Source: a virus
Direction: 5' to 3' (one strand)
Length of the DNA stretch: 64,000 bases
IMG/VR virus record: IMGVR_UViG_3300030419_004148
Span: 1 to 64,000 of that record
The translations under genes were made by a program, and so were the position numbers. Positions 4,335-29,651 of the stretch are shown here, piece after piece. The stretch's first letter is position 1; each line of letters starts with the position of its first letter. The notes beneath the pieces are model-generated. The model was given only the letters and a program-made list of their open reading frames with translations, was not told the DNA's origin and ran no database searches.

Positions 4335-5687
4335 ATGAGCGAAGAAGAACCAAAAGAAGCCATAGTTAAATCTATGAGCGAAGAAGAAATGGCAAGCAAA
4401 AGTCGTTTAACCGCCGTTTACCCCGCCCCAGCAGAACAAATGAGTGACCAGCAATTATTGTATAGGATGTTTTCAATATTCAGTCCTAGCAGCGATGAAC
4501 ACGCAATGATAGCATTTGTCACAAATTATCTCCGTGATAATGAAATAGAGCACCAAATAGATAGTGCTGGAAATATATATTTTAACAATCACGTTGAAGG
4601 AGACTGCCGGATTTTACTGAATGCACATATGGATACCGTAGCAAGTGCTGTGGCAAATGTCATTCAAGTAGAAGAGGATGGGAAAGCTGTGTTTAAATCA
4701 TCAAACAATCAAGTTATAGGTGGAGACGACAAGTGTGGTGTATTTGCTGTATTAAAATGCATCACAGATAGAACAATAACAACGCCGTTAATGGGTATGT
4801 TGAATGTGTCCGAAGAGATTGGCTTAGTCGGTAGTGACTTTGCTATGGAACATCATTCTGACCTGTTCAAAGACGTTGTGTTCTGTATAACGGTAGACCG
4901 CCGTGGCAATACTGAAATTATCACAAAAAACAGCGATGTAGACTTATGCAGTGATGATATGGAAAAAATGCTTGGTGAGTGGGGCAAAGATTATGGCCTA
5001 CGAACTGCTACAGGTTCCATATCTGACGTAAGTAATGTTGTAAAAGCATTAGAAATTAATGGTATTAATTTATTTGCTGGATATTACAATGCTCACTCTG
5101 GTAGTGAAAAAGTCGTTTATGAAGAACTGCTTGAATCAGTTAGATTTATTAAGTTTTTAGTGCCGGAATTACATAAGTATTTCAGCGATAATCCTGACAA
5201 AGTGAAATATGAACCATCAAAAAGCTGGTCCAACTATCCTCGATACGGCGGATATTACGGATATACCGAATGGGGAAGTGGATACGGCCTTAAATCATAT
5301 GGCGGCGTTAAAGTATATGAAACTGCTAACGATGTAGACCATCACGAAGCATTAGATATGTTAGATATGCTGATTGAGGAAATAGAGGACATACAGGATA
5401 ATTACTTTATGTTCGATGCATTACGGCAAGCTGAGACACGATTAAGCACATCTGGAAAATCGCTAGTTATTGAAGAGGGCTGGAATTTATTCTATACTGA
5501 AATGAAAGAATTAGATGCTCACTTACACGTTTATGACGGCGGTGTATTGAAAGGTGGAAAAGCAGAAGATGCAGTTATCTCAATAAAAGTTTTACAAGCA
5601 TTTGAAGATGCAGTTAGCGCTCGCAAAACAGCCGAGCAGTTTGATGTGACTTGGGATGACTTAGATAATGGAGGAGCGACTGACTAA
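4335..5687 (+). CDS. M20-family metallopeptidase (peptidase T-like), 450 aa
   Basis: All metal and catalytic positions of the M20 peptidase family are visible: H98 and D100 in NAHMDTV, D131 in IGGDDKCG, E160/E161 in SEEIGLVGS, D188 in VDRRG and H254 in NAHSGSEKV. M20 enzymes bind two zinc ions and trim peptides or acylated amino acids. The first 35 residues are an acidic, repetitive linker (two SEEE blocks) and about 170 residues beyond residue 285 are additional, with Tyr/Gly-rich sequence near 300-330. It has no signal peptide, so it acts in the cytoplasm or is packaged. Processing of host peptides or a viral maturation role are both guesses. Confidence 0.85.
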   Translation: MSEEEPKEAIVKSMSEEEMASKSRLTAVYPAPAEQMSDQQLLYRMFSIFSPSSDEHAMIAFVTNYLRDNEIEHQIDSAGNIYFNNHVEGDCRILLNAHMDTVASAVANVIQVEEDGKAVFKSSNNQVIGGDDKCGVFAVLKCITDRTITTPLMGMLNVSEEIGLVGSDFAMEHHSDLFKDVVFCITVDRRGNTEIITKNSDVDLCSDDMEKMLGEWGKDYGLRTATGSISDVSNVVKALEINGINLFAGYYNAHSGSEKVVYEELLESVRFIKFLVPELHKYFSDNPDKVKYEPSKSWSNYPRYGGYYGYTEWGSGYGLKSYGGVKVYETANDVDHHEALDMLDMLIEEIEDIQDNYFMFDALRQAETRLSTSGKSLVIEEGWNLFYTEMKELDAHLHVYDGGVLKGGKAEDAVISIKVLQAFEDAVSARKTAEQFDVTWDDLDNGGATD

Positions 5688-11125: not shown

Positions 11126-12022
11126 ATGAGAGAAGGAAACATTAAACCTGAACTATTACAAGGAAATGCTTTAGATGTTGTTAAGGAGCTAGATGATGAG
11201 TCAATACAATGTGTTGTCACGTCACCACCTTATTGGGCTTTACGTGATTATGGTAATGAAGGGCAATTTGGTTGTGAACCAACGGTTGAAGAATATGCTA
11301 ACAATTTAGTAAAATTATTTGAAGAGATTAAACCAAAATTAAAAGAGGATGGAACAGTATGGATAAACATAGGAGACAGTTATGCCGGGTTTTCTGGTAA
11401 CACAGGCGGTGCTACAGGCAGTGATAAGAGAGGAACGCGAAACGCTTCCATCATTAAGAAAGGAGCTAACCTCAAAGAACGAGACCTTATTGGTGTGCCG
11501 TGGGTGGCTGCGCTGGCCCTCAGAGAAGCAGGATGGTATTTGCGTTGTGACATTGTATGGGCGAAACCTAACCCCATCCCTGAAAGCGTTAAAAATAGAC
11601 CCACGCGCTCGCACGAGTTTATATTTCTGCTGTCGAAAAATCCCCAATACTACTACGATATGGATGCCATAAGAGAACCACTGAAGAGTAAGATTGGACC
11701 AGCTGTTAATAAGAAAGGAGAAAGACAAATAGTGGGTAATCCTAAAGGAAAGAACTCAAGAGATGTGTGGTGGATAGCACCTAAATCTATTCGTAATTCA
11801 CATATTGCTGTGTTCCCCCCAGAATTACCTAAGAAATGTATATTAGCTGGAACAAAACCCGGCGATATTGTATTAGACCCATTTTCAGGTAGCGGCACTA
11901 CTTGTAGAGTAGCTCGTGAATTAGGGAGAAAGGGAATTGGTATTGAATTGTCAGAAGAGTATCATAAACTAGCAATGAAATTAACATTTGGAGATAACAG
12001 TTCATTAGAGGATTTTCTTTGA
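11126..12022 (+). CDS. DNA N-methyltransferase (m6A or m4C), beta-class order, 298 aa
   Basis: AAGGTGATT precedes the ATG. The catalytic motif TSPPYW lies at residues 32-37 and the S-adenosylmethionine motif DPFSGSG at 251-257, the N-to-C order of beta-class amino-methyltransferases. The motif suits methylation of adenine N6 or cytosine N4. No restriction partner is adjacent, so it probably modifies viral DNA against host restriction, or regulates. Bases about 11400-11650 are clearly richer in G+C than the rest of the gene, as if that part was acquired separately. Confidence 0.9.
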   Translation: MREGNIKPELLQGNALDVVKELDDESIQCVVTSPPYWALRDYGNEGQFGCEPTVEEYANNLVKLFEEIKPKLKEDGTVWINIGDSYAGFSGNTGGATGSDKRGTRNASIIKKGANLKERDLIGVPWVAALALREAGWYLRCDIVWAKPNPIPESVKNRPTRSHEFIFLLSKNPQYYYDMDAIREPLKSKIGPAVNKKGERQIVGNPKGKNSRDVWWIAPKSIRNSHIAVFPPELPKKCILAGTKPGDIVLDPFSGSGTTCRVARELGRKGIGIELSEEYHKLAMKLTFGDNSSLEDFL

Positions 12023-12085: not shown

Positions 12086-12589
12086 ATGAAAACTAACAAT
12101 TATACAGGTAAGAATTTTGAGTGGGAAGTGAGAAAATCACTGAAAGATGCTGGATGGTGGTGGTTTAGAATACAAGATACGAATGACGTATCGAGATTCG
12201 TTAAGAAAGCCATATCTGAAAAACAACCCGGCGATTTCTTTGCGGTTGCTGATGGTTTACCCATCTTAATAGAATGTAAAACTAGTAGGAATAAAACTTC
12301 TTTTCCACTTTATTATAATAAAACACCAGCAATTCCAGAACACCAGATACAATACGCATTAGATTTAGTAGATGCTGGTGGTGTTGCTTGGTTTTTAGTG
12401 AGAAGAGATGAACCTCGTAATAAAAGAGTGTTTGCATTAAGTCCTCATCAAGTTAGATTAATGTATGATAGTGCCAGTAGAAAGTCAGTTAAATGGCACG
12501 TTATAGAGACTTTAGGAATAGAATTAGAAAGATTATCTAAACCTGTAAGATACGATATAACAAAACTTTTAAATACTACTTTAGGTTAA
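12086..12589 (+). CDS. PD-(D/E)XK nuclease, Holliday-junction-resolvase-like, 167 aa
   Basis: GGAGATG precedes the ATG; a weak TATA-like TTATATTT lies near 12030. Motifs: an early Glu (E13), PGD (D50) and ECK (E63, K65), the metal-binding core of PD-(D/E)XK nucleases such as archaeal Hjc and RecU. Resolvases of this build cut branched DNA in recombination and before packaging. Other restriction-type nucleases share the fold, so resolvase is the best but not the only reading. Confidence 0.7.
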   Translation: MKTNNYTGKNFEWEVRKSLKDAGWWWFRIQDTNDVSRFVKKAISEKQPGDFFAVADGLPILIECKTSRNKTSFPLYYNKTPAIPEHQIQYALDLVDAGGVAWFLVRRDEPRNKRVFALSPHQVRLMYDSASRKSVKWHVIETLGIELERLSKPVRYDITKLLNTTLG

Positions 12590-14996: not shown

Positions 14997-15250
14997 ATAA
15001 TAATGAAAGAGCAATAGAAATGACACATCACTGTGTTAGAAATAATACTATACTAGAAGATATACACGCCGGTAAGTCATTACCTGACAAATATATGGAA
15101 GGTTATAGTAGGATTACTGACGAAGAGATGAAACAACTTATGCAAGAAATAATAAGTAATATTGAAACGTGTTTGGAGACACCTATTTTAGATATGATAT
15201 TTGATACAGGAATCTTTAAAGCACCAAAGGAATGGACAGGAATTAGATGA
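14993..15250 (+). CDS. Unknown protein, 85 aa
   Basis: ATGA overlaps at both ends place it firmly in the replication operon. Helical and acidic; contains a short YMEGYSRITDEEMKQLMQE stretch. No recognised family. Confidence 0.65.
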   Translation: MNNNERAIEMTHHCVRNNTILEDIHAGKSLPDKYMEGYSRITDEEMKQLMQEIISNIETCLETPILDMIFDTGIFKAPKEWTGIR

Positions 15251-16626
15251 GCCAATTTGAATTAACAGATTTAGTTAGATATTTTCATAACGTAAGAAAT
15301 GAAAAAGGAGAGCACGTTCCTATCATAGGAGAAGATAAACTTGCTGTAACAGCTGCTTTATCTTACCTATTAGAAGATACGAATTTTATGATTAACGCTT
15401 ATAGTGGGACTGGTAAAACTGTCATTATGAATGCTGTTTTTAATTTACTGAAGGATACTGGAATACCTTATGTAGTAATAGAGCAAATGTCTGAGACTGC
15501 TTTATGGTATGATATGGACAGAATTAATCAGTCTCGCTTTTTAGCAATACCAGAAGCACAAAAATGTCCAGAAGCTATTATTGAAATTTTAAAGACTTGG
15601 GCAGATGATAGAGAAGCAGTAAGAAAAAGAACTGACGTAACGATACAAGATGTTAGAGAACAAGTATTATTTCCTAAGTATGTTTTTGTATGTAAAGCTG
15701 TAGAAAATAAAAGAGGAGATGCATTTTTAGATGCTGAGTTAGAGAGACGTTATATGGTAACTCATACTAACCCAACAGTTAAACAAACCGAAGACGTTAT
15801 AAAATATAAATTAGATACTTTTGCTAAACCTCACGAAGATTTAGTTACTATGGAAGATAAAGAAATAGATGCACTTAGAAAACATATTGCTGATTGTATA
15901 ATAGAAAGAGATGACACTAGGGGTGTGAAAATAAGGAACCCTTGCGCTCCCTTTTTATATGATTTAATACCTACTTTATTTCCTATAGCTAGAAGTAAAG
16001 TTCATTATTATCTTAAATTAATTAATGCCGTTGCTAGATTTTATCCCGGCGAATTAGTAAGAGTTGAAAGAGATGGTGTTACCTACGGTTTGATAACTCC
16101 TAAACATAATTGGTTAGCTACTCAAATTTATATTGATACGTTTGTAACAGAATGTTTACAAATGCCATCACACGGAGTAGATATTTTAAAATTAATACCT
16201 GATACAGAAATTGATAAGTATGGGATGGTTACAAGCGAAGTAATTAAAATGTCTAAGAAAGAAATACAACAAGCTGCTAGACAAGCAGGGTTACCATTTG
16301 CACAGAAAAATATTAACCCTCTTTTAACATCATTAGTTATGTTAGGATTTTTAGAACAAGATGAGGAAGATAAAAAAATATCATACTTTAAATCTGCATT
16401 AGTTAGAGAACCTAGCACAAAGATAGATTGGTCTAATTTAATGAAAGGCACACAAGCATTAATGAAAGACACTTGGCCTGAAATTGCTGATGAATATAAT
16501 AAGAATTATTGCACTGAAATAGAAGTAGAAGACCCATTTACGAGGGAAAAACAAGTGTTATCTGCTGGTAAAGAAAAAGAAAAGGTGATAGATGACAAAG
16601 TTGACTACGGAGGGTGGTATGCTTAA
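15247..16626 (+). CDS. P-loop ATPase of the replication operon, likely helicase or loader, 459 aa
   Basis: The Walker A motif GTGKT lies at residues 54-58 after a strand NFMINAYS. A clear Walker B is not obvious; candidates lie near 75-95 (RFLAIPEAQ). The C-terminal third looks like winged-helix domains (YGMVTSEVIKMSKKEIQQAA, then a LVMLGFLEQDEEDKKISYF wing). AAA+ ATPases with C-terminal winged helices include MCM- and Cdc6-like proteins, and position next to the polymerase supports a helicase or loader. The exact family is unclear. Confidence 0.65.
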   Translation: MSQFELTDLVRYFHNVRNEKGEHVPIIGEDKLAVTAALSYLLEDTNFMINAYSGTGKTVIMNAVFNLLKDTGIPYVVIEQMSETALWYDMDRINQSRFLAIPEAQKCPEAIIEILKTWADDREAVRKRTDVTIQDVREQVLFPKYVFVCKAVENKRGDAFLDAELERRYMVTHTNPTVKQTEDVIKYKLDTFAKPHEDLVTMEDKEIDALRKHIADCIIERDDTRGVKIRNPCAPFLYDLIPTLFPIARSKVHYYLKLINAVARFYPGELVRVERDGVTYGLITPKHNWLATQIYIDTFVTECLQMPSHGVDILKLIPDTEIDKYGMVTSEVIKMSKKEIQQAARQAGLPFAQKNINPLLTSLVMLGFLEQDEEDKKISYFKSALVREPSTKIDWSNLMKGTQALMKDTWPEIADEYNKNYCTEIEVEDPFTREKQVLSAGKEKEKVIDDKVDYGGWYA

Positions 16627-16900
16627 ACCATATAAACCTAAAGGTGAAATGTATGGTGTTGTAAGAGACATTAGCGGTGGTTCAAGATTAAGAGTGTTTT
16701 GTGAAGATGAAAGAAACAGAATGGTTAGAATACCCGGCAAACTAAAGAAAAAGATGTGGGTAAGAGTTGGAGACACAGTTGTTATTAAAAAATGGCCTAT
16801 CCAAGAGAATGAAAAAGCTGATTTAGTTTACAGATACACAAAAACACAAAAGGAAAGATTAATAAGAGATGGAAATATACCAGAGGTGTTACAAATATGA
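16619..16900 (+). CDS. aif1A: Archaeal translation initiation factor 1A (aIF1A), 93 aa
   Basis: ACGGAGGG precedes ATG 16619, which overlaps the upstream stop; an earlier in-frame ATG at 16592 is less likely. The protein follows the aIF1A/eIF1A OB-fold end to end: YGVVRDISGGSRLRVFCED, RNRMVRIPGKLKKKMWVRVG, VVIKKWP, then KADLVYRYTKTQKERL. The IPGK-(K)-W(V/I)R-GD and RYT(K/R)TQ signatures are diagnostic. Cellular aIF1A binds the ribosomal A site and promotes initiation-complex assembly. A viral copy could bias initiation to viral mRNAs. Length matches cellular aIF1A. Confidence 0.95.
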   Translation: MLKPYKPKGEMYGVVRDISGGSRLRVFCEDERNRMVRIPGKLKKKMWVRVGDTVVIKKWPIQENEKADLVYRYTKTQKERLIRDGNIPEVLQI

Positions 16901-17151
16901 GTAATAGACAAGCGTTAAACAGAGAACAATGGTTAGATTTATTGAGAAGTTGCTCAATGCATCACAGAAAACAAGCGGAAGAAACTGCACCAACAATAAT
17001 AGGACAGCAACCAACAGAAGAGCATATAATGCACAAAGTTTGGTCTATGTCTATAGATGAAGCAGTTGAGTTAATAGCTATTTTACCGACTACTGATGAA
17101 GAAGAGTCTGATGGCGATTTACCACAACATAGGAAGGGACCAATAGGATGA
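16897..17151 (+). CDS. Unknown protein, 84 aa
   Basis: ATGA overlap with aIF1A and with DNA polymerase, so it is co-translated with both. Contains a His/Gln-rich segment (SCSMHHRKQAEETAP) and an acidic end. No family recognised. Confidence 0.65.
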   Translation: MSNRQALNREQWLDLLRSCSMHHRKQAEETAPTIIGQQPTEEHIMHKVWSMSIDEAVELIAILPTTDEEESDGDLPQHRKGPIG

Positions 17152-19376
17152 AAATACCATTAATTGCTATGAGTAGTAATTATACTGTCAATAGAATGAC
17201 AGGTGAACAACAGATAATAGTCTGGACTAATGGTGAGAAAAGAATAATTAAATCTCCCAGAGAGCATTATTATTACGTTCCTAACGAAGAAGGTAATGAA
17301 TATAAAGTATTAGGAAGTAAAAACAGGAAATTTAAAAGACATCAGGTAAACAATGCACAAGAATTACACCCTGATAATATACCACCTTATGCTAAATTAG
17401 ACGGGGTTACTAACAATGAGATAGAAAGAATTTGTATAGAGCACCCTGATTTTTTTAATCAATACCCTCATAAAAACTTAAAGAGTTTGGGATTTGATTT
17501 AGAAGTTACTTCAGCAGACGGTTCTTTTCCTTTAGGTGAGAAGCACCCTATAGTAGCTATAGGATATGTTACTAGTGACGGTCATCGTGAATCTTTATTA
17601 TGGGATGGAGAAACTGATAAAGATATTATCGAGACCTTTGCTGATTTTATTAATGATTATGACCCTGATGTAATATATGGGTATAATTTGATAGGTTACG
17701 ACATACCTCAATTATTTGCTCGTGCTAAAAGGCACGGTATTAATCTTAAACCAAAACTAAACCGAGAAAATAACGCTTCATTTGGTTGGGAAACTGATTT
17801 TTCTTATCATAAAAAGACACGAATCCAAACGTGGGGTCGTGTAATTATTGATGTATATAATTTTACAAGTAGAGATTATGCTCTTGCTGGTATAAGAAAG
17901 AGATTAAAAGATGTAGCTAGGTTCTACGGACACGACCCTATAGAATTAGATTTTAGTGAGAAAGACATTTTAGATTATGATATAGACACAGTAAATGAAT
18001 ATGTTTTGAGTGATTGTGATATTACTAAATGGTTATTTAATCATTATTTTGTACAACATCAATATATTGCTGAAACTCTAGGAGTTCCTTTGGAATTATA
18101 CATTAATTCAGCAGATTCATTTATAACTAAAATATTACAAGGTAGAGATTTATACAAGAAAAAGATACTAACTATAGATAAAAATATAGATAGATACCCT
18201 GAGACTAAAAGTTTTCAAGCAGCACATATTGAATTATATATGCCGGGATTTCACAAAGAAAACTATAAAGTCGATTTTGCTTCTATGTATCCTAGTATAG
18301 CAATGACATTAAATTTAGGACCAGATACTACAAAAATTATAGAATATCAAGATTATGACATTTCTAAATTTAGTTGTAAGTTTAAAAATAATTGTATGTA
18401 TCTTACTATACCTGACAATGTTATAAATAAGAATGTTATAATTGAAGTAGACCAATCGTTTAAATCCGGACTTTATACTATGTGTAAAAACTTTAATCGT
18501 ATGAGAGAACCATTTAAGAAAATTAAAACACACGAAGCTAAAAGTAAATCTAATGGTCTTAAGATAATGGTGAATACATTCTATGGCGCAAATACAAATC
18601 CATATATGACTTACGGAGATATATCTGTAGGAGTTGCTATCACAGGCGTTGCTCGATGGTTAATAATGGGAGCTAAAAAATTAATAGAAATGAAATATGG
18701 TGAGAATTCAGTTGTATACATTCACACAGATGGTATTAATACAAACAAAGATATTGACGTTGATTGGGTTAATAAAGAATTACAAAAGGGTGTTGAAAGT
18801 TTTTTTACTGGAAGTGAACCAGAATGGGTCAAAGTAGATAAAGACGTTTTTAAAGAAGGAGTTTGGCTACAGATAGGTAATTACGTTTTAAGAAATGAAG
18901 ACGGCAGTTTAACAAAACACGGCTCAACATTTAAAGCAAAGACTCGTTCTCAATTTTATTTAAAAGTTTTAAAGAAGATTACTCTTGCTAGATTAGATAA
19001 TATTGTTAATGCAGAATTTGTTGAGGACTTATATGATTTTGATAATTATGTTCTAGAAGATTTTTTACAAACACGTTCTATGAATAGAAATATAGGAGAT
19101 TATGTTGGTGAAAATGAATTAGTTGTTCAATTAGCAAAGCAAGGAGAAGAACTTGGTATGCGAACTGGACCCGGAACTACATTTTATTATTATAAAGCAA
19201 AAGATAAATATTTATTAGAAGAAAGTGTAGAATCTTTAAACCAAATAGATATAAAGTATCATTGGGATATTATTAATAACCTACTAAAGAAATTTGGGTT
19301 AGAAACTTGGATAAGAAAAAAACCCAGCATTACTGTAGTAGATAGAAATCAACAAAGTTTATTGGAGTTTGTATGA
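17148..19376 (+). CDS. polB: Family B DNA polymerase with 3'-5' exonuclease, 742 aa
   Basis: The exonuclease motifs are intact: FDLEV (D117, E119), YNLIGYD (179-185) and YVLSDCD (Y285, D289). Polymerase motif A is DFASMYPS (D376), motif B is KIMVNTFYG (472-480) and motif C is YIHTDG (524-529). In motif C the first Asp of the usual DTD is His526; the essential second Asp (D528) is kept. The length suits a compact archaeal/viral PolB without large insertions. It replicates viral DNA with the primase at 22978 and the ATPase at 15247. Confidence 0.95.
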   Translation: MKIPLIAMSSNYTVNRMTGEQQIIVWTNGEKRIIKSPREHYYYVPNEEGNEYKVLGSKNRKFKRHQVNNAQELHPDNIPPYAKLDGVTNNEIERICIEHPDFFNQYPHKNLKSLGFDLEVTSADGSFPLGEKHPIVAIGYVTSDGHRESLLWDGETDKDIIETFADFINDYDPDVIYGYNLIGYDIPQLFARAKRHGINLKPKLNRENNASFGWETDFSYHKKTRIQTWGRVIIDVYNFTSRDYALAGIRKRLKDVARFYGHDPIELDFSEKDILDYDIDTVNEYVLSDCDITKWLFNHYFVQHQYIAETLGVPLELYINSADSFITKILQGRDLYKKKILTIDKNIDRYPETKSFQAAHIELYMPGFHKENYKVDFASMYPSIAMTLNLGPDTTKIIEYQDYDISKFSCKFKNNCMYLTIPDNVINKNVIIEVDQSFKSGLYTMCKNFNRMREPFKKIKTHEAKSKSNGLKIMVNTFYGANTNPYMTYGDISVGVAITGVARWLIMGAKKLIEMKYGENSVVYIHTDGINTNKDIDVDWVNKELQKGVESFFTGSEPEWVKVDKDVFKEGVWLQIGNYVLRNEDGSLTKHGSTFKAKTRSQFYLKVLKKITLARLDNIVNAEFVEDLYDFDNYVLEDFLQTRSMNRNIGDYVGENELVVQLAKQGEELGMRTGPGTTFYYYKAKDKYLLEESVESLNQIDIKYHWDIINNLLKKFGLETWIRKKPSITVVDRNQQSLLEFV

Positions 19377-20293: not shown

Positions 20294-21655
20294 ATGAAGA
20301 TAATGCCAATTAGTGATTCGCCTTGGGCTCCTACAGGATTCGGGACGAATACAAGAAATATAGCGTCAATTTTTGCAGAAGAAGGTCATACAATAGGTTA
20401 TGCTGGGTGTCAAAACGCAGAGCACAATCCTACTTGGGAAACACCGTGGCCTTTAGGTCAGGAAGAAAAAAAGGTATCTTTTGAGATATTACCTTTGATG
20501 TTTCCGGGTCAAGAAAAGTTTGGAGAAAAGTCTTTTCCTAAATGGATGGAAGGTTTCCAACCAGAATTAGTATTTACACACCTCGATATTCAAATGTTTG
20601 ATTATGTTACTAAAGGTAAAGTAATAACTGGAGTTAACATTCCTTTTGAAAACCAAGACGGTGGAGCAATAAACAGAGCAGAATTTATTAAAATAGCTAG
20701 AAAAGCATTTAAAACAGCTAACAAAGATAGATTTAAACTTGCCTCTATTATTCCAATTGATGGGCAACCTTCTATACCAGCGTGGATAGAAACAATTAAA
20801 CACGTTGATTATCCTATAGCAATGTCTTATTATGGTCAAACTGTAATGAGAGAAGATTTTAATGGATATGATTCTACTGTTATTTCCCACGGTGTAGATA
20901 CAGATTTCTTTAAACCAGTAGATATGCCTAAACCAAATGGTGCGTTTGTTGTGGGGTGTGTGGCACGAAATCAACACCGTAAAAACATACCACGTTTAAT
21001 GAGGTCATTTAAAATATTTGTAGAAGAAAATAACATTTCACCTGATGATGCAAAACTATTGTTGCATATGGATTGGACTGACCATATGGGATGGAATATA
21101 CAATATATGGCAAGTGAGCACGTATATGATATTGCTGATTATCTAATACCACCTACGATGGGTAATTTAGAAAAGGGCGAACACCCTGATGACCAAGGGA
21201 TGGTTGACATTTACAATATGATGGATGTTCACGGTTTGCCAACTGGTGGTGAAGGATTTGGTATTCCTACCGTAGAAGCAATGGCTTGTGGTGTTCCTAA
21301 TGTAATATGTAACTACACGACTAGTTATGAATTAGTGGGAGCAGACAAACCAGAATGTCCAACAGAAATGCTTATGCCTCACGGTTGGGATGGTGATGAT
21401 AATTTAATTGAAACTGATAGAGGTTTCCTAGTACCGTATAAAGATATAATGTGGGATACTCCTATTAGAGCAGCACCAAGACGTGCTATGTGGGATGAAC
21501 GAGCAGCAGCAAAAGCTTTTGAGTACTATTATAACAACCGTGATGTATGTAAAGAACACGGAAAGAATGCAAGAAAATATGCAGTTAAACATTATGACTG
21601 GATGAAAGCAATAGGACCGAAATGGAAGAAGTGGTTGAAAACAGTGAGAGTATGA
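20294..21655 (+). CDS. Glycosyltransferase, GT4-like (GT-B fold), 453 aa
   Basis: The N-terminal domain opens with SPWAPTGFGTNTRNI, the glycine-rich loop typical of GT-B enzymes. The C-terminal domain has GCVARNQHRKNIPRLM and the EX7E motif GEGFGIPTVEAMACGVP, which binds the nucleotide sugar. Such enzymes move a sugar from UDP- or GDP-sugar to an acceptor. It opens the sugar cluster at 20.3-27.7 kb and overlaps the next gene by ATGA. The acceptor may be a virion protein or a host glycan. Confidence 0.85.
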   Translation: MKIMPISDSPWAPTGFGTNTRNIASIFAEEGHTIGYAGCQNAEHNPTWETPWPLGQEEKKVSFEILPLMFPGQEKFGEKSFPKWMEGFQPELVFTHLDIQMFDYVTKGKVITGVNIPFENQDGGAINRAEFIKIARKAFKTANKDRFKLASIIPIDGQPSIPAWIETIKHVDYPIAMSYYGQTVMREDFNGYDSTVISHGVDTDFFKPVDMPKPNGAFVVGCVARNQHRKNIPRLMRSFKIFVEENNISPDDAKLLLHMDWTDHMGWNIQYMASEHVYDIADYLIPPTMGNLEKGEHPDDQGMVDIYNMMDVHGLPTGGEGFGIPTVEAMACGVPNVICNYTTSYELVGADKPECPTEMLMPHGWDGDDNLIETDRGFLVPYKDIMWDTPIRAAPRRAMWDERAAAKAFEYYYNNRDVCKEHGKNARKYAVKHYDWMKAIGPKWKKWLKTVRV

Positions 21656-22311
21656 AAACATATATATTCTATCATTGTACCACAATAGGTGATTATCACC
21701 AAAGGTTCTTAAAAACATATTTTAAGGCAAAATTATCAGGACTTGTAGATAGATGCACTCGATTTTTTGTTTGCATAAATGGTACTGAATCAGTTCAAAA
21801 TAATTTATTTGAAATAGATAGTAAAGTAAAAACTATTGTTGTTTCAGAAGAAAAATATCCTAATGAATCTATTACTATAAATACAATAAAAAGATTCTGC
21901 GATGATTTAGAAGATAGAGCAAATATATTATATATACATAATAAAGGAGTAACAAAGCCAAATGTACTCAACGTTCAAGAATGGGTAGATTATATGGAAT
22001 ATTTTGTTATAGAACAATGGGAAGATTGTTTAATGAAATTAAGAATGAATAGTAAATTATGTGTAGGAACTGAAGCAAAACACGGATTTGGTGGTGACCA
22101 ATGGCATTATTCAGGTGGTTTTTGGTGGGCACAATCAGAACATATAAAGACATTACCTTTATGTAGCAGTGGTTACTTTGATGCTGAACAGTGGGTATTG
22201 AAACCTCTAGATAAAAATGATTTCCATAGTTATATGGAATTGAATAAAGAACAAATGGGGTTTTATAACCATAAAATATCAAGGAAGGATTATGAAAATG
22301 TGGTTGAGTGA
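21652..22311 (+). CDS. Glycosyltransferase-like protein, 219 aa
   Basis: Start at ATG 21652 in an ATGA overlap. Motifs ANILYIHNKGVTKP and WHYSGGFWWAQSEHIKTLP match a glycosyltransferase-associated family in which a HYSGxFWWA block ends the catalytic domain. I recognise the pattern but not a confirmed activity. Next to a GT4 enzyme, it probably acts on the same glycan. Confidence 0.65.
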   Translation: MKTYIFYHCTTIGDYHQRFLKTYFKAKLSGLVDRCTRFFVCINGTESVQNNLFEIDSKVKTIVVSEEKYPNESITINTIKRFCDDLEDRANILYIHNKGVTKPNVLNVQEWVDYMEYFVIEQWEDCLMKLRMNSKLCVGTEAKHGFGGDQWHYSGGFWWAQSEHIKTLPLCSSGYFDAEQWVLKPLDKNDFHSYMELNKEQMGFYNHKISRKDYENVVE

Positions 22312-22405
22312 ATATGAAAGTCCGAATCATCTAGATGTAATGTTTTTCATTATATTCTTTTACCCTCTAGCTGTAGAATATTTAAAATGGAGATTGGGAA
22401 TATGA
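22292..22405 (+). CDS. Small membrane protein, 37 aa
   Basis: AAGGAAGG precedes the ATG, which lies 20 bases before the previous stop. One hydrophobic stretch (LDVMFFIIFFYPLAVEYL) then a basic end. Its stop overlaps the next start (ATGA). It may anchor a glycosylation enzyme, but that is a guess. Confidence 0.5.
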   Translation: MKMWLSEYESPNHLDVMFFIIFFYPLAVEYLKWRLGI

Positions 22406-22749
22406 ATTTTGTGTTTGGATTAGAAGATGTAATATGCACACCTCACGCTGATTTTAATGCGTGTAGACCTATAGCTAATGTAACTCCGTTTATGCAATGG
22501 TTAAAGAAAAAGGGACATCACATTACAATATGGACAAAAAGATTAAACGATTTAGAATCTAAATTAAAAACTGAACAATGGTTACAGGCTCATCAAATAC
22601 CTTACGATAGATTAATATTTGATAGACCTAGAAAAGCTATTTTTGTAGATGAAACACCTTGTAATGCTAAATATTATACACATAGTGAAGATACTTATGT
22701 TGTTGCTGAATTATTTGAGGAATGGAAGTTAGATTTAGATGTTAGGTAA
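22402..22749 (+). CDS. HAD-like phosphatase homolog lacking its nucleophile, 115 aa
   Basis: ATG 22402 in ATGA fits better than an in-frame ATG at 22387. The protein follows small HAD phosphatases of sugar biosynthesis: an ICTPHADF.ACRPI start, KGHHITIWTKR (motif II) and KAIFVDETP (motif IV). Motif I, normally DxDGT, reads GLEDV, so the nucleophilic Asp is Gly and the second Asp is Glu. Catalysis by the usual mechanism seems impossible. It may bind a sugar phosphate or a partner enzyme. Confidence 0.7.
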   Translation: MNFVFGLEDVICTPHADFNACRPIANVTPFMQWLKKKGHHITIWTKRLNDLESKLKTEQWLQAHQIPYDRLIFDRPRKAIFVDETPCNAKYYTHSEDTYVVAELFEEWKLDLDVR

Positions 22750-23011
22750 AAACGGACCGTTAATGAAAGTGAAATGGCTAGATGCTGTAAATGAAAGAGG
22801 AATGAAAAAGATAAATGTAGAAGACCCAAGTGAACATTTGTGCTATTGTGAAACAATAGGAGAAGTGGTTGCACAAGATGAAAGAGCTATAATAATTACA
22901 TATCATTATACTGATTTTGATGGCGTAGATTTTATATGCATCCCTACTTCTTGGGTTGTTGAAATGGAGGAATTGACTTGTTTAGAGAATTCGGAATCCC
23001 AGCAAGGGTAA
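22739..23011 (+). CDS. Unknown protein, 90 aa
   Basis: The ATG lies inside the previous gene's end; an alternative ATG is at 22763. Beta-rich middle (AIIITYHYTDFDGVDFICIP). No family recognised. Overlaps the primase gene start by 34 bases. Confidence 0.55.
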   Translation: MLGKNGPLMKVKWLDAVNERGMKKINVEDPSEHLCYCETIGEVVAQDERAIIITYHYTDFDGVDFICIPTSWVVEMEELTCLENSESQQG

Positions 23012-24048
23012 GAAAGTGTTATTCGACTGAAGATATATTAACATCCCTTGATGAATTTAATGGTAAAAGAAATTGTTACATTAGTGTATATGCGTTTTCT
23101 GAAATGGAAGGTAAGAAAACAAATTACGAAAGTGCCATTATCAATACTGTGTGGTTTGATTTTGACCATAATAAAGACGTTAGTAAATGTTTAAAAGATG
23201 TAAGAAAGTTATATAATCGTTTTTGTAAACCACGGAATTTATTACCACGTATATATTATACAGGTGGTAGAGGATTTCAAGTAAATATAGATTTTCCTTA
23301 TCCAATTGATTTACCAGTTAGTATAAAAAGACAAGCTATTAAAGATTTTTTATTCCATCTAAAAAAGAAATATACCTTAACTACTTTAGATGAACACTGT
23401 ATAGGAAATAGTGTATCTTGTTTACGTAGAATGCCTAATAGTGAATATTTAGATAAGAAAACCTTTGAACCAACTGGTAGAAGATGTATTCAAATAAGTG
23501 TTAAAGATTTACTAGAAAGGGATATGGATGACATTATGGAATTATCTACAGGTGATTATAAATGCAAAAGACCTGAAAGAAAAGATAATAAGACTATAAT
23601 AAAAGAATTATTATTTTTTGTATGTGACAATCTAGGAATTACTCACACACCTACTAATAGTGAAGATTATTTAATTAATGAAATAAATAAATCAAAAGGG
23701 TTTCAACCATCAATACAATATGTCGCTAATAACTTTAGATTACACCCTAGAAAATGTGTAATGGATATGATAAATAAAGCAATTGATGATAACAAATCAT
23801 CACATACGCAGAACAATATTATTGCGACTGAATTATTAAACTGTGGATGGAAAGCAGATGACATAGGGTTTATATTTAAATGTATATATAACGAGCCTGC
23901 CGGAGACTGGGGTTGGTATACTGACGATAACAAAGCAGGAATGCATATTAAGAACCTTTCAGCGAAAGGTATAAATAGGTATTCAAAGGATAGATTACTA
24001 GAGTTAAATGTATGTAAGAACAAGATTTGTTCTTGCGGAGGTAAATAA
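22978..24048 (+). CDS. Archaeo-eukaryotic primase (PriS-like), 356 aa
   Basis: TTG start with GGAGG seven bases upstream. Catalytic carboxylates sit in VWFDFDHNKD (D61, D63), the nucleotide-binding loop in RIYYTGGRGFQVNIDF (about 91-106) and a conserved basic motif in SCLRRMPNS (147-155), the order found in AEP small-subunit primases. The C-terminal 150 residues are helical with clustered cysteines at the very end (CKNKICSCGG). It makes primers for PolB. No large subunit is seen. Confidence 0.85.
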   Translation: MFREFGIPARVRKCYSTEDILTSLDEFNGKRNCYISVYAFSEMEGKKTNYESAIINTVWFDFDHNKDVSKCLKDVRKLYNRFCKPRNLLPRIYYTGGRGFQVNIDFPYPIDLPVSIKRQAIKDFLFHLKKKYTLTTLDEHCIGNSVSCLRRMPNSEYLDKKTFEPTGRRCIQISVKDLLERDMDDIMELSTGDYKCKRPERKDNKTIIKELLFFVCDNLGITHTPTNSEDYLINEINKSKGFQPSIQYVANNFRLHPRKCVMDMINKAIDDNKSSHTQNNIIATELLNCGWKADDIGFIFKCIYNEPAGDWGWYTDDNKAGMHIKNLSAKGINRYSKDRLLELNVCKNKICSCGGK

Positions 24049-24359
24049 TGACAAAAGTAGAGAAAAAAGTAAAAGACATCGAAGCTTGGATAGCAGATTT
24101 TGAGGAATCTAGCAATGAAAAATTAGTATTTAGTAATATTAATTTCTTAGTGAATCAATTAAAAAATATGGGTGACAGACTACAAGCTGTAGAACAATCA
24201 CACATACAACTAGAACAAGCATTACAACAAAATGCAAAAACCGTTCAAGATTTTATTGGCGACAATGAACTCGAAAAAAAGTGGAATAAATATTTAGAAG
24301 ATTTGCAAGAGGACGCTAACGATGCCACTGAAGAAGGGAAAGAGCAAGAAGACAATTAG
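24048..24359 (+). CDS. Coiled-coil protein, 103 aa
   Basis: Starts at the last base of the primase stop. Nearly all helix, with a heptad-like stretch (NMGDRLQAVEQSHIQLEQAL) and an acidic tail. Likely an oligomer. Function unknown; from here the genes change from replication to small virion-like proteins. Confidence 0.6.
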   Translation: MTKVEKKVKDIEAWIADFEESSNEKLVFSNINFLVNQLKNMGDRLQAVEQSHIQLEQALQQNAKTVQDFIGDNELEKKWNKYLEDLQEDANDATEEGKEQEDN

Positions 24360-24471
24360 TAAAAATATCCGAAAACTTAGAAAAGAAGGATATAAACCTA
24401 AACAAGCAGCAGCAATTGCGTATAATACTGCTGGGAAGAAAAAGCGCAAAACACCAAAAAGGAAACGATAA
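24322..24471 (+). CDS. Basic phage protein, 49 aa
   Basis: The product begins MPLKKGKSKKTISKNIRKLR and ends in a run of Lys/Arg. Short proteins with this 'KKGKSKKTISKNI..L...GK..KQAvAIAy..AGK' plan are frequent in marine phages, often near structural genes; their function is not known. Overlaps the coiled-coil gene by 38 bases. Confidence 0.7.
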   Translation: MPLKKGKSKKTISKNIRKLRKEGYKPKQAAAIAYNTAGKKKRKTPKRKR

Positions 24472-24473
24472 AT

Positions 24474-24758
24474 ATGGTAAATACAACTGATTACAAGGTG
24501 ACAAGATACGAATGGTATCCTTCTGAAGAGCCTACCGGTATATGCGTAGGTTTTACAGCAACTTGTTCTCCTAATGGAAGAGCACAATACTGGGATACTG
24601 TAGTTGCTAGTGGAGCAACTGACGGAAAAACACAAGATGAAATTGTAGGTTTAGCTTGGGATGCTTTATCTGGAACTTGCGTTCCTTGGGGCGAAGCAAA
24701 CGAATCAAAATCATCATTAATAGGAACAACCTATAAGACAATAACCGGAAGTGCATAA
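24474..24758 (+). CDS. Unknown protein, 94 aa
   Basis: Beta-rich sequence with small residues (GFTATCSPNGRAQYWDTVVA). No leader or membrane segment. The build resembles small virion or tail proteins, though nothing proves it. Ends in TAATG overlap. Confidence 0.6.
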   Translation: MVNTTDYKVTRYEWYPSEEPTGICVGFTATCSPNGRAQYWDTVVASGATDGKTQDEIVGLAWDALSGTCVPWGEANESKSSLIGTTYKTITGSA

Positions 24759-24898
24759 TGGCTAAAGATGATAAAAAAGAAAAATCTGTAGAAGAAAAAA
24801 TTGAAGAAGTAGTGGAGGAAGTGAAAGAAGAAGGTGTAGATGTAGAAGTTACAAAAGAATCTACTGTTAAAAACGCCTCCTCTAACGCTTACGAATAA
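24758..24898 (+). CDS. Acidic microprotein, 46 aa
   Basis: TAATG start. Alternating Glu/Lys/Val helix (EKIEEVVEEVKEEGVDVEV). No recognised family. The next gene begins directly after the stop. Confidence 0.5.
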   Translation: MAKDDKKEKSVEEKIEEVVEEVKEEGVDVEVTKESTVKNASSNAYE

Positions 24899-25129
24899 AT
24901 GGTTGCAAGTCCTGAAGAAGGAGCTGGCATAGTCAAAGCAATGCTTAGATACGTAGATGTAGATATGGCATTAGCAATAGTGGAAGATGTCTGGGAAGAA
25001 GTTGGAAAAGAAAGTAGTAATGAATCATTAAGAGATAGTATCTTACTATTAAAAGATTATTTAGAGGGACAATGGGAATACTCACTACCAATTCAAAGCG
25101 ATACCCAGTTTCAGGACAGCGGGTCGTAG
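24899..25129 (+). CDS. Unknown acidic protein, 76 aa
   Basis: Begins immediately after the previous stop. Helical, acidic; no known motif. Followed by the second part of the sugar cluster. Confidence 0.55.
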   Translation: MVASPEEGAGIVKAMLRYVDVDMALAIVEDVWEEVGKESSNESLRDSILLLKDYLEGQWEYSLPIQSDTQFQDSGS

Positions 25130-25139
25130 TTGATTATAA

Positions 25140-25988
25140 ATGAACATAGCCTTAATATCATTCGATAGAGCAGACTACATTGAGTCAGTTCTTAAATCAT
25201 TAAAGCAACAAACATTTCAAGATTTTAAATTATATTGGTTTAATGACGGGTTAGTTAATAAATATTCTTGGAGAAGAGCAGCTGATTTAGTTAACGTTAC
25301 TAAATGTTGTGACTTAGCAAAGGAATATTTTCCTGACTGTGAAATATTTCTAAGTGATGCTAATATTGGTATCGCAGAAAATTGGAGACGAGCAGAAGTT
25401 CATATGTTCTATGATTTAGGATTGGACGAATGTGTTTTTATGGAAGATGACTTAGAATTAACGTCTCCTTATTATTTAGAAACATTAAACAATATGTTTG
25501 ATGCATTTAGAGATGACGAAGAAATAGGTATGTTTAGTGCATTTGGAGAGACTACCAGCGTTAAAACTCCCGGTGTTATGAAGAATATGGGGCACTTATG
25601 GGCCTTTGGAACTACAAAAAAGGCTTGGGAAAAAAGACAAGAGGTGTTTTATGATGAATATTATAACTTTGTTAAAGGCACAGATTTTGTATATAGAGAC
25701 CGTGATGGAATCAGAAAACTATATGAAAAGTATGGTGGTAAATGGGAAATAGCAGATAGCCAAGACGGTGCTATATGTTTAGCAAGTATGTTAGCAGACC
25801 AAATTCATATTAGTACTGAAGTTAATTTAGCTACATATATAGGGGAAGTTGGAATGCATTTCAATACACAGACCTATAATCATATGGGTTTCAATAGAAC
25901 ACCTTTATATAACGAGGGTGCCATTAAGGAATTTACAGTTGATAAAGAAAATATAAAAAAGATACAACGGAAGGAATTTTTAAAATGA
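25140..25988 (+). CDS. Glycosyltransferase, GT-A/GT2-like, 282 aa
   Basis: N-terminal MNIALISFDRADYIESVLKS and SLKQQTFQDF are typical of GT2 enzymes ('r.....l..sl..Qt...f'), followed by NDG and ANIGIAENWRRAE. FMEDDLELT supplies the acidic DxD-like metal site. It should add a sugar from a nucleotide donor by an inverting mechanism. ATGA overlap with the epimerase gene. Confidence 0.75.
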   Translation: MNIALISFDRADYIESVLKSLKQQTFQDFKLYWFNDGLVNKYSWRRAADLVNVTKCCDLAKEYFPDCEIFLSDANIGIAENWRRAEVHMFYDLGLDECVFMEDDLELTSPYYLETLNNMFDAFRDDEEIGMFSAFGETTSVKTPGVMKNMGHLWAFGTTKKAWEKRQEVFYDEYYNFVKGTDFVYRDRDGIRKLYEKYGGKWEIADSQDGAICLASMLADQIHISTEVNLATYIGEVGMHFNTQTYNHMGFNRTPLYNEGAIKEFTVDKENIKKIQRKEFLK

Positions 25989-27043
25989 GAACAGTCTTAA
26001 TTACAGGTATTGGAGGTTTAATGGGCGCTCGTATGGCTCATTGGATTTTAGAAAATACTAATCATAGAGTTGTTGGTATAGATGATTTATCTGGAGGATA
26101 TAAATCTAATATTCCTAAAAAGGCCAAATTTTACCACTTTGATTTATCCACCAATGCAATAGTATCTGGTGAAAAGGGCAATAATAGATATGGTGATTAT
26201 GGGTTAGAGTGGATTTTTGAACAAGAAAAACCAGATTTTGTATATCATTTTGCAGCTTATGCTGCCGAATGTCTAAGTCCTTTTATTAGAAGGTATAATT
26301 ACAGCAATAACTTACTATCTACAGCAAATGTCATAAATGAATGTATAAGGCACGATGTTAAAAGACTAGTTTTTACATCTTCAATGGCAGTATATGGAGA
26401 AGCTAATGACCCTCCATTCGATGAGTCTTATGAAAGGGCACCTAAAGACCCTTATGGTGTAGCTAAAGCAGGTTGTGAACTCGATATTGAAATTGCGGGA
26501 GTACAACACGGATTAGATTGGTGTATTATTAGACCCCATAACGTTTATGGTATTAAACAAAATATATGGGATAAATATAGGAATGTTTTAGGTATATGGA
26601 TGTATCAATTTTTAAACGATAAACCATTATTAATATATGGAGATGGAAATCAAAAAAGAGCTTTTAGTTACATTGATGATTGTTTGTTTCCTATGTGGAA
26701 GGCAGCAATTAAACCTGAAGCCAGCAAACAGATAATTAATTTAGGTGGAACACAAGAAGTAAGTATAAATGAAGCTTGTGAAACTTTAACAAAGGTATTT
26801 GATAATGATACGAGTGGTTATGCAGATAAACCAGTTAGAATAAAACATATGGAACCTCGACACGAAGTTAGACGTGCTTGGTCTACTTATCAAAAATCTG
26901 TAGATATATTAGATTATTCAGATAATACGAGTTTAGAAAAGGGATTAACTCAAATGTGGAATTGGGCAAAGACTCAACCAATGAAAAAAAGGAAGAAAAT
27001 GAAATATGAAATCGATAAAGAATTGTACTCTTATTGGAATTGA
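25985..27043 (+). CDS. NAD-dependent nucleotide-sugar epimerase/dehydratase, 352 aa
   Basis: Extended SDR enzyme: glycine motif TGIGGLMG (7-14), D33 for NAD ribose, SSMAVYGE (132-139) and the catalytic pair Y157/K161 in YGVAKAG. The closest known plan is UDP-glucose 4-epimerase and relatives. It would make the donor sugar used by the neighbouring transferases. No membrane segment. Confidence 0.85.
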   Translation: MRTVLITGIGGLMGARMAHWILENTNHRVVGIDDLSGGYKSNIPKKAKFYHFDLSTNAIVSGEKGNNRYGDYGLEWIFEQEKPDFVYHFAAYAAECLSPFIRRYNYSNNLLSTANVINECIRHDVKRLVFTSSMAVYGEANDPPFDESYERAPKDPYGVAKAGCELDIEIAGVQHGLDWCIIRPHNVYGIKQNIWDKYRNVLGIWMYQFLNDKPLLIYGDGNQKRAFSYIDDCLFPMWKAAIKPEASKQIINLGGTQEVSINEACETLTKVFDNDTSGYADKPVRIKHMEPRHEVRRAWSTYQKSVDILDYSDNTSLEKGLTQMWNWAKTQPMKKRKKMKYEIDKELYSYWN

Positions 27044-27749
27044 AGGTGTAGAGAAAAGATTACCGCAGTTCCTTAAGGCTGCTAATATCTGTCAACATTA
27101 TATGAAATTTACAAATGTAAAACTATTATCTCCTTTTAAAATAGATAGTCCAAATTGGGTTCGTATAAAGAAGTTACCAGATAGAGATGCTTATTGTAAA
27201 TTCGTAATAAAAGATTTACACAGATATATAGATACTAAGTATTTTTTATTATTTCAAAATGATGGTTGGATTTTAAACCCTGATGCGTGGGAAGACGACT
27301 TTTTAAATTATGATTATATAGGAGCAGCGTGGGGATGGGATGAATACCCGTGCGGTAATGGAGGTTTTACTTTTAGAAGTAAAGCATTAATGGAAGAATG
27401 TAGTAGGGTGATTATTAATCAATATGAACCAGAGGATTTAGTTATTTGTACTAAATATAAACCTCACTTAGAGTCAAAAGGATTTAAGTTTGCACCTAGA
27501 GAGGTAGCAGAAAAATTCGCTTTAGAAAAGAACTTCAAGTATGAAGACAAATGGAATGGACAGTTTGGATTTCACGATATAGAAAAAACTGACATAAGTG
27601 GATGGAAACCACCTAAACCTGAATATGCCCTTGATTGGGACCAATTTGCTATGCAAATGAGAGGTAAAAATTTAAGATTTAGAGAATACCCACCTACCAT
27701 AGAAGCAAGTGTTTTGAAACTTTCAAAAGACGAGCGGGACAAACTTTAA
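27006..27749 (+). CDS. DUF5672-type glycosyltransferase-like protein, 247 aa
   Basis: Overlaps the epimerase gene by 38 bases. Motifs YFLLFQNDGWILNPDAWEDDF, YIGAAWGW and CGNGGFTFRSKALME match the DUF5672 pattern ('vLifq.Ds.l', 'yiGAPW', 'GNGGfSlRs'). These proteins sit in glycan loci, and the fold looks like GT-A. Activity not established. Confidence 0.7.
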   Translation: MKSIKNCTLIGIEGVEKRLPQFLKAANICQHYMKFTNVKLLSPFKIDSPNWVRIKKLPDRDAYCKFVIKDLHRYIDTKYFLLFQNDGWILNPDAWEDDFLNYDYIGAAWGWDEYPCGNGGFTFRSKALMEECSRVIINQYEPEDLVICTKYKPHLESKGFKFAPREVAEKFALEKNFKYEDKWNGQFGFHDIEKTDISGWKPPKPEYALDWDQFAMQMRGKNLRFREYPPTIEASVLKLSKDERDKL

Positions 27750-27782: not shown

Positions 27783-29651
27783 ATGTTTAAAAATGAAGTA
27801 GCAGAATTTATATATAAGAGAACATATTCTCGGTGGATAGAAGAAGAAGGTCGTCGTGAAGAGTGGCCTGAGACTATAGAAAGATTGATTGATTTTCTAA
27901 TTTCAAAAAAGGGTAAAAAAATACCAGAAAAAACAATAAGAAAAATAAGAAAATATATGACCGAGTTTGCAGTAATGCCTTCTATGAGGATGTTGTGGGC
28001 AGCTGGTCCAGCAGCTGAAAAAGATAATACTGTTATTTACAATTGTTCTTTTGCTAAACTTAATTGTGTAGAAGCTTTTGCAGAATGTTTACATATATTA
28101 ATGTGTGGCACTGGATTTGGATTTTCTGTAGAAAAAGAAGAAACTGAAAAATTACCTTCAATCCCTGAAATTAAATCAGGTAAAGATAAAGCTAGAATCA
28201 TTATAGAAGATTCTAGAGAAGGGTGGGCAGATTCAGTAAAAACATTAATGACTAGTTTATATGAAGGACAGAATTTATATTTTGATTATTCTCTATTAAG
28301 ACCGGAGGGGGCTCGTCTGGGGACTATGGGTGGTAGGTCATCCGGTCCTCAGCCGTTAATTAAACTGCACGATTTTATACGTGAAACTATGCATAATGCA
28401 CAGGGTAGAAAACTAACTACTCTAGAATGTCACGATATAGCAAATCAAATAGCAGAAATAGTAGTTGCGGGGGGAGTGAGACGTAGTTCACAAATATCAT
28501 TATCAGATTTAGATGATGAAGAAATGCGTCACGCAAAAGATTGGCCTTTCCCTATTAGAAGAGCTATGGCAAATAATTCTGCTATATATAGAAACAAACC
28601 TTCTGCTGCAGATTTCTTAGTAGAATGGGGTGTATTAGCAAAATCGGGCAGCGGTGAACGTGGGATATTTAATTTATTATCTGCCCAAAATAAAGCACCA
28701 AGTCGTAGATATGCACCACTTATTCAAGGAACTAACCCTTGCGGCGAAATAATGTTACGTGATATGGAATTTTGTAACCTATCTGAAGTTGTAGTTAGGG
28801 AAGATGATGACTTAGATACACTTTTAGACAAAGTAGAAACAGCTACTTGGTTAGGTGTTTTACAATCAACTTTCACTGACTTCCCATATCTTAGAAAAGA
28901 GTGGAAAAAGAATTGTGGCGTAGAACGTCTTTTAGGCGTTAGTTTAACTGGACAGATGGATAGACCCTCCCTAATGAACTCGGAGGTCTTAAAAGCCCTT
29001 AAATCGCGTGTTATACGCATTTCTCGTAAAGCATCGACAGCATTGGGTGTCAATATGCCTGTAGCGACCACTTGTGTTAAGCCTTCAGGCACAGTATCAC
29101 AGTTAGTAGATTCAGCTAGTGGATGTCATCCTAGATACTCTCAATATTATATTAGAAGATATAGGATATCTGCAACTGACCCACTATTCACAATGTTAAA
29201 AGACCAAGGTGTGCCTTGCCATCCAGAAAACGGTCAAGATGAAGAAACAGCAACAACGTGGGTATTAGAATTCCCAGTAAAAGCCCCTGAAGGGTGTCTT
29301 ACTAGAAAGGATGTAACTGCGATGGACCAATTAAGTCATTATAAAAATTTACAACTTAACTGGTGTGAACATAATGCAAGTATGACTGTGTATGTAAGAG
29401 AGGATGAATGGTTTGAAGTAGGCAATTGGGTATACAAAAACTGGGATATTATTAATGGAGTATCATTTTTACCATACGATGGAGGGCATTACGAATTAGC
29501 CCCTTATGAAGAAATAGACCATTATACCTACGAAAGTCTTATAAAGAAATTCCCCAATATTAATTATAGCAAGCTTTCGCAATATGAATTAGAGGACGAA
29601 ACTCAAGGTTCACGAGAGTATGCTTGTACAGGTGATAAATGTGACATTTGA
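27783..29651 (+). CDS. nrdJ: Adenosylcobalamin-dependent ribonucleotide reductase (class II), 622 aa
   Basis: YNCSF (C88) and NPCGEI...FCNLSE (radical Cys C320, partner C331) keep the spacing of the monomeric Lactobacillus RTPR, where the radical cysteine and its disulfide partner are also 11 apart. The C-terminal CTGDKC pair (C615, C620) is the re-reducing thiol pair. It turns ribonucleotides into deoxyribonucleotides using coenzyme B12 and no oxygen. The host must supply B12. Short stretches near 28290-28360 and 28920-29100 are richer in G+C than the rest. Confidence 0.93.
   Translation: MFKNEVAEFIYKRTYSRWIEEEGRREEWPETIERLIDFLISKKGKKIPEKTIRKIRKYMTEFAVMPSMRMLWAAGPAAEKDNTVIYNCSFAKLNCVEAFAECLHILMCGTGFGFSVEKEETEKLPSIPEIKSGKDKARIIIEDSREGWADSVKTLMTSLYEGQNLYFDYSLLRPEGARLGTMGGRSSGPQPLIKLHDFIRETMHNAQGRKLTTLECHDIANQIAEIVVAGGVRRSSQISLSDLDDEEMRHAKDWPFPIRRAMANNSAIYRNKPSAADFLVEWGVLAKSGSGERGIFNLLSAQNKAPSRRYAPLIQGTNPCGEIMLRDMEFCNLSEVVVREDDDLDTLLDKVETATWLGVLQSTFTDFPYLRKEWKKNCGVERLLGVSLTGQMDRPSLMNSEVLKALKSRVIRISRKASTALGVNMPVATTCVKPSGTVSQLVDSASGCHPRYSQYYIRRYRISATDPLFTMLKDQGVPCHPENGQDEETATTWVLEFPVKAPEGCLTRKDVTAMDQLSHYKNLQLNWCEHNASMTVYVREDEWFEVGNWVYKNWDIINGVSFLPYDGGHYELAPYEEIDHYTYESLIKKFPNINYSKLSQYELEDETQGSREYACTGDKCDI

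What the first reader, a model, noticed from the sequence alone, without database searches (positions are those of the whole stretch)
16619..16900. Virus-encoded translation initiation factor aIF1A
The 93-aa protein matches aIF1A over its full length, including IPGK, a W-x-R-x-GD turn and RYTKTQ. It sits between the replication ATPase and DNA polymerase genes, so it belongs to the viral operon. Taking over translation initiation would let the virus favour its own mRNAs, many of which appear to have short or no leaders. I know of no well-described archaeal virus strategy of this kind.
Basis: partly seen in the sequence, partly recalled or inferred. Interest (0 to 1): 0.85.

Follow-up and report, generated by a model that had tools for sequence, protein, structure and literature searches.

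The report
Archaeal virus carries translation initiation factor
A lineage of tailed viruses that probably infect archaea carries its own copy of aIF1A, the small protein that helps archaeal ribosomes find the start of a message; it has been kept and passed down with the viral replication genes, so these viruses probably intervene in protein synthesis at its first step.

Summary
Window 16619-16900 encodes a full-length aIF1A: Pfam eIF-1a 65 bits, NCBIfam archaeal IF-1A 108 bits against a cut-off of 91, best solved relatives M. jannaschii and P. abyssi aIF1A, and a confident AlphaFold model with TM 0.85-0.90 to P. abyssi aIF1A. It is not host DNA. At least 37 other IMG/VR contigs carry the gene, between a halovirus-type ATPase and PolB. 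The viral proteins form one supported clade, diverge in step with PolB (r = 0.81) and are under purifying selection (median dN/dS 0.14). One subclade lacks the gene, probably by loss. None was found in 50,697 annotated phage records or in PHROGs, and I found no report of one in an archaeal virus. Best explanation: a working initiation factor that binds the A site of the host 30S subunit. The A1493-stacking Trp is invariant, and the turn that touches helix 44 is fixed as G-G-S-R in all viral copies. That it favours viral mRNAs is not shown. Precedents: IF1 in huge phages, eIF1A in giant viruses, L21e in haloviruses. This is a new archaeal variant of a known strategy.

The parts
16619..16900 (+). 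viral aIF1A, 93 aa
   Evidence: Pfam, NCBIfam, PDB and fold matches
16676..16687 (+). codons of the Gly-Gly-Ser-Arg turn (residues 20-23), invariant in all viral copies; aligns with the h44-contacting turn (residues 34-36) of P. abyssi aIF1A
   Evidence: contact reported in PMC5103072
16757..16759 (+). codon of Trp47, equivalent to P. abyssi W60 and eIF1A W69, the residue that stacks on the A1493-equivalent base of h44
   Evidence: alignment and query/chain offsets; function from PMC6122471 and PMC7005279
16609..16614 (+). Shine-Dalgarno-like GGAGGG in front of the 16619 start codon
   Evidence: sequence
15247..16626 (+). P-loop ATPase/helicase-like protein (phrog_12057), upstream neighbour; annotated relatives only in haloarchaeal tailed viruses
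16897..17151 (+). small conserved ORF of unknown function, overlaps the aIF1A stop and the PolB start
17148..19376 (+). family B DNA polymerase, downstream partner in the conserved cluster

Best explanation
The gene encodes a working aIF1A. It was captured, apparently once, from an archaeon by an ancestor of this tailed-virus lineage and then kept and inherited with the replication genes. During infection it is made together with the replication proteins (inferred from the overlapping gene cluster and the Shine-Dalgarno sites). It binds the A site of the host 30S subunit, docking its turn and its Trp against helix 44, and takes part in initiation complexes with host aIF1, aIF2 and initiator tRNA. 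It thereby supplies or raises initiation capacity when the virus needs large amounts of protein. Shown: family, fold, retention of ribosome-contact residues, viral ownership, single viral clade in the sample, purifying selection. Inferred: expression, binding to host 30S, and any net gain for viral over host mRNAs.
For: Family and fold: pLDDT 87; TM 0.85-0.90 to P. abyssi aIF1A. Viral ownership: 33 IMG/VR loci and four more contigs; every locus holding both flanks has the order ATPase, aIF1A, PolB. The virus has terminase, portal, major capsid and tape-measure genes. Single viral clade, support 100/89. Pairwise distances follow PolB, r = 0.81, 0 of 2000 Mantel permutations as high. dN/dS median 0.14 over 80 measurable pairs. 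Residues shared with cellular aIF1A: R34, R37, I38, G40, W47, D52, W59, D68, R72, Y73. W47 corresponds to eIF1A W69, which stacks on the A1493-equivalent base (PMC6122471), and the viral G-G-S-R turn corresponds to P. abyssi residues 34-36, which contact h44 (PMC5103072). aIF1A is essential in Haloferax volcanii (PMC3828320).
Against: No expression, binding or activity data exist. The protein scores below the TIGR00523 equivalog cut-off (96.7 against 102.9). Most viral relatives have lost the Pro of IPGK (G in 24 of 33), although this window keeps it. A subclade without the gene exists, so it is not indispensable. The cluster position beside ATPase and PolB would also suit a replication protein. 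In S. solfataricus in vitro, aIF1A had no obvious effect on toeprint intensity (PMC11698992), so extra aIF1A need not raise initiation.
Confidence: 0.72

Rival explanations
1. Host shut-off. The viral aIF1A binds the 30S A site but fails a later step, such as its own release or aIF5B-driven subunit joining. It thereby blocks initiation on host mRNAs while viral mRNAs escape.
For: Ribosome-contact residues are retained, while the h44 turn and the C-terminal P88-E89 segment are fixed in a virus-specific way, as expected if binding is kept and another property is changed.
Against: Strong purifying selection over the whole domain and near-complete retention of the cellular core. No lost partner motif can be named. 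Viral genes carry ordinary Shine-Dalgarno starts, so an escape route for viral mRNA is not evident.
Confidence: 0.13
2. Repurposed nucleic-acid-binding protein. The OB fold now serves DNA replication, for example as a single-strand or polymerase accessory factor, which would explain its place beside ATPase and PolB.
For: The place beside the ATPase and upstream of PolB is invariant across the lineage. OB folds are common in replication proteins (general knowledge).
Against: Trp47 and the conserved core, whose known role is contact with rRNA helix 44, are invariant in 33 viral sequences. Fold and sequence both match aIF1A specifically. Viral gene clusters often mix functions, so position is weak evidence.
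Confidence: 0.1
3. Host DNA misassembled into the contig, or a chance passenger gene with no function.
For: Host-type gene in a metagenomic contig; one related contig (3300037195_000659) does carry two copies of the neighbourhood and may be chimeric.
Against: At least 37 other contigs with the gene, a constant arrangement, a separate viral clade, co-divergence with PolB and purifying selection.
Confidence: 0.02

Closest known systems
Cellular aIF1A (M. jannaschii 1jt8, P. abyssi 4mno/7zai)
   Same: Same fold, length and conserved core, 41-47% identity in the fold search
   Different: Encoded by a virus; fixed G-G-S-R turn, Met35 and C-terminal P-E segment in the viral clade
Bacterial IF1 and IF3 in huge phages (Al-Shayeb et al. 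2020, PMC7162821)
   Same: A tailed virus carrying an initiation factor, proposed there to redirect host translation
   Different: Bacterial factor, genomes over 200 kb with many translation genes; here the archaeal factor in a record of 75.5 kb with one tRNA and no other translation gene recognised
eIF1A of klosneuviruses and other giant viruses (BFVD hits; PMC6401483)
   Same: Same protein family in a virus, TM 0.79-0.86 over the domain for the best hits
   Different: Eukaryotic viruses, longer proteins (146-239 aa), and large sets of translation genes
Ribosomal protein L21e in Hafunaviridae (Liu et al. 2021, PMC8651126)
   Same: Translation protein in archaeal tailed viruses, a group whose ATPase is the nearest annotated relative of the neighbour gene here
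   Different: A large-subunit structural protein in four viruses, not an initiation factor; that paper's main text mentions no initiation factor, and HRTV-5 has no PF01176 match

Membership tests
aIF1A (PF01176, NCBIfam archaeal IF-1A) | Full-length match above curated cut-offs | tested here: met
   PF01176 65 bits, cut-off 30.2, positions 1-64 of 64; NF003084 108.3 bits, cut-off 91
aIF1A (TIGR00523 equivalog) | Score above the cut-off that NCBI uses to assign the same function | tested here: inconclusive
   96.7 bits against 102.9: formally below this one cut-off, full-length match, as for a diverged member
aIF1A | OB fold with C-terminal helix as in solved aIF1A | tested here: met
   AlphaFold model, pLDDT 87, TM 0.85-0.90 to P. 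abyssi aIF1A
aIF1A | Archaeal/eukaryotic Trp at the A1493-stacking position (Arg in bacterial IF1) | tested here: met
   W47, invariant in 33 viral sequences; role from PMC6122471
aIF1A | IPGK-type motif | tested here: met
   Present in the window; Pro replaced by Gly in 24 of 33 viral sequences
aIF1A | Binds the 30S A site and supports initiation | not testable with these tools
   Needs biochemistry or complementation
Archaeal tailed viruses (Caudoviricetes) | Terminase, portal, major capsid protein, tape measure, and archaeal host | tested here: inconclusive
   The four hallmark genes are present. Archaeal host is inferred from the ATPase, whose 53 annotated relatives are all haloviruses, and from aIF1A itself; no host link by spacers or isolation
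Hafunaviridae | Close gene content and sequence similarity | tested here: not met
   Only about 23% identity in the ATPase; no major capsid match among phage records

The most novel reading that the evidence does not exclude
The viral aIF1A is a specialised initiation factor that changes start selection on the host ribosome in favour of viral messages. The virus-fixed h44-contacting turn (G-G-S-R) and C-terminal P-E segment would be the altered parts, making this an archaeal virus strategy of taking over translation at the initiation step with a single factor.
Probability: 0.3. Interest if true: 0.82.

Novelty: new variant of a known kind. Interest (0 to 1): 0.62.

Why it matters
Viral capture of initiation factors is known from bacterial huge phages and eukaryotic giant viruses. 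This would fill in the third domain with the archaeal version, in a fairly small genome with almost no other translation genes. Because aIF1A is small, essential, structurally understood and genetically accessible in Haloferax volcanii, it makes the question whether a virus-borne initiation factor redirects translation directly testable.

Tried and rejected
Misassembly or host contamination: rejected by conserved synteny. Other S1/OB family: rejected. Bacterial IF1: no IF-1 model appears among the NCBIfam hits, and bacterial IF1 structures rank well below aIF1A and eIF1A. Leaderless-mRNA argument: tested and not supported. Search for aIF1A in annotated phages with the viral, haloarchaeal and methanogen sequences: none. 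Scan of IMG/VR with a mostly cellular profile: only three hits, all in this same lineage, so I found no second independent viral capture, within the limits of a one-pattern scan. Host assignment: not reached. Genome-collection scans are capped; the cellular sample is mostly DPANN plus three haloarchaea, M. jannaschii and P. abyssi, so the donor lineage stays open, and the weak placement near Aenigmatarchaeota, M. jannaschii and P. abyssi (61/90, midpoint root) should not be read as a host. L006 is labelled Thaumarchaeota but groups with Diapherotrites and is probably a mislabelled or contaminated bin. A match of the small ORF 16897-17151 to tyrosine phosphatase was below cut-off and rejected.

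Full report
What is there. The window is bases 1-64000 of a 75,525-base IMG/VR virus record. At 16619-16900 (+) an ORF of 93 codons encodes a protein that matches Pfam eIF-1a over the whole model (65 bits), the NCBIfam archaeal IF-1A subfamily model above its cut-off (108.3 against 91) and, among solved structures, M. jannaschii and P. abyssi aIF1A best. It falls slightly short of the TIGR00523 equivalog cut-off (96.7 against 102.9). An AlphaFold model built on 29 viral sequences is confident (mean pLDDT 87) and its best matches in the PDB are P. abyssi aIF1A, TM 0.85-0.90, then eukaryotic eIF1A; bacterial IF1 comes lower.

It is viral. A scan of IMG/VR with a profile of the window protein, one viral homologue and four archaeal genes gave 33 loci, and PolB and ATPase scans added four more contigs. 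Wherever both flanks are held, the gene lies directly downstream of a phrog_12057-type ATPase and upstream of a family B DNA polymerase. In the window the ATPase, aIF1A, an 84-aa ORF and PolB overlap by 4 to 8 nt at each junction. In more distant relatives extra ORFs lie between aIF1A and PolB. The record also encodes a large terminase subunit, portal, major capsid protein and tape measure, so it is a tailed virus. The ATPase has annotated relatives only in haloarchaeal tailed viruses (53 of 53 records, about 23% identity) and the terminase has its best match in Halogranum tailed virus 1 (23%). With aIF1A itself this points to an archaeal host, which is an inference.

History. In a tree of 98 sequences (33 viral, DPANN archaea, three haloarchaea, M. 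jannaschii, P. abyssi, one eukaryote; 92 columns) the viral proteins are one side of a branch with support 100/89, in 99% of bootstrap trees. Their distances follow those of PolB (r = 0.81, no Mantel permutation as high in 2000). Nei-Gojobori dN/dS over the 80 pairs with dS between 0.05 and 1.5 has a median of 0.14; values at high dS are rough. In a tree of the ATPase, the four contigs without aIF1A form one clade nested inside the lineage, which suggests loss rather than ancestral absence (the nesting has only moderate support, 86/76). One search finds no PF01176 match anywhere in the 55.8-kb member of that clade. The cellular sample lacks most archaeal phyla, so the donor is unknown.

How it may work. 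Residues shared by viral and cellular proteins are R34, R37, I38, G40, W47, D52, W59, D68, R72 and Y73. W47 aligns with P. [quoted passage not shown] The tight turn of P. abyssi aIF1A at residues 34-36 contacts helix 44 (PMC5103072). The aligned viral residues are Gly-Ser-Arg of a G-G-S-R that is invariant in 33 viral sequences and variable in 65 cellular ones. This could be tuning, or simply inheritance from the donor. A P-E pair near the C terminus is also nearly fixed in viruses. Taken together the protein looks able to bind the A site of 30S. aIF1A is essential in H. volcanii (PMC3828320), so a viral copy could supply a needed factor, raise its dose or alter its behaviour; sequence cannot decide between these.

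Check of the leader argument. Of 53 ORFs of at least 80 aa, 37 have a 4-nt and 18 a 5-nt Shine-Dalgarno match in the 20 bases upstream, against 18% and 6% of other ATGs. Most of the viral aIF1A genes are preceded by a strong motif such as GCAGAAGGAGATTATAATG. So the virus does not look leaderless, although transcript starts are unknown and genes inside an operon say nothing about the first gene of a transcript.

Other translation genes. Apart from one tRNA-Lys no other translation gene was recognised among the ORFs scanned with Pfam; not every small ORF was scanned.

Comparison with what is known. Initiation factors IF1 and IF3 occur in huge phages (PMC7162821), eIF1A in giant viruses (PMC6401483; BFVD hits), and ribosomal protein L21e in four Hafunaviridae (PMC8651126). 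None of 50,697 phage records matches viral, haloarchaeal or methanogen aIF1A, and PHROGs has no family that matches it. Ten literature searches found no archaeal virus with a translation initiation factor. Most subscription papers are not held in that library, so priority is not proven. The finding is therefore a well-supported archaeal variant of a known viral strategy.

Noticed in passing
window 20294-27749: Glycosyltransferases, an NAD-dependent epimerase/GDP-mannose dehydratase-like protein and a DUF5672 protein, which suggests virus-encoded glycan modification.
   Followed up: no
window 27783-29651: Ribonucleotide reductase matching phrog_367 strongly, with a B12-dependent (class II) insertion domain.
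   Followed up: no
window 2465-2542: Single tRNA-Lys (CTT) gene near the left end of the record.
   Followed up: partly
window 4335-5687: M42-type peptidase homologue; further right an N6/N4 DNA methylase (11126-12022) and a RecU-like protein (12086-12589).
   Followed up: no
L067 7305-9051, L068 7057-8066, L070 7305-7919: Relatives without aIF1A have other ORFs at the site, including one that looks GIY-YIG-like and, in L068, one that looks HNH-like (by eye only).
   Followed up: partly
L058 and L070 (contig IMGVR 3300037195_000659): One 31-kb contig carries two ATPase-PolB neighbourhoods about 67% identical, one with and one without aIF1A; possibly a chimeric assembly.
   Followed up: partly
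L006: Bin named Thaumarchaeota whose aIF1A is very close to that of a Diapherotrites bin (L005); probably mislabelled or contaminated.
   Followed up: no
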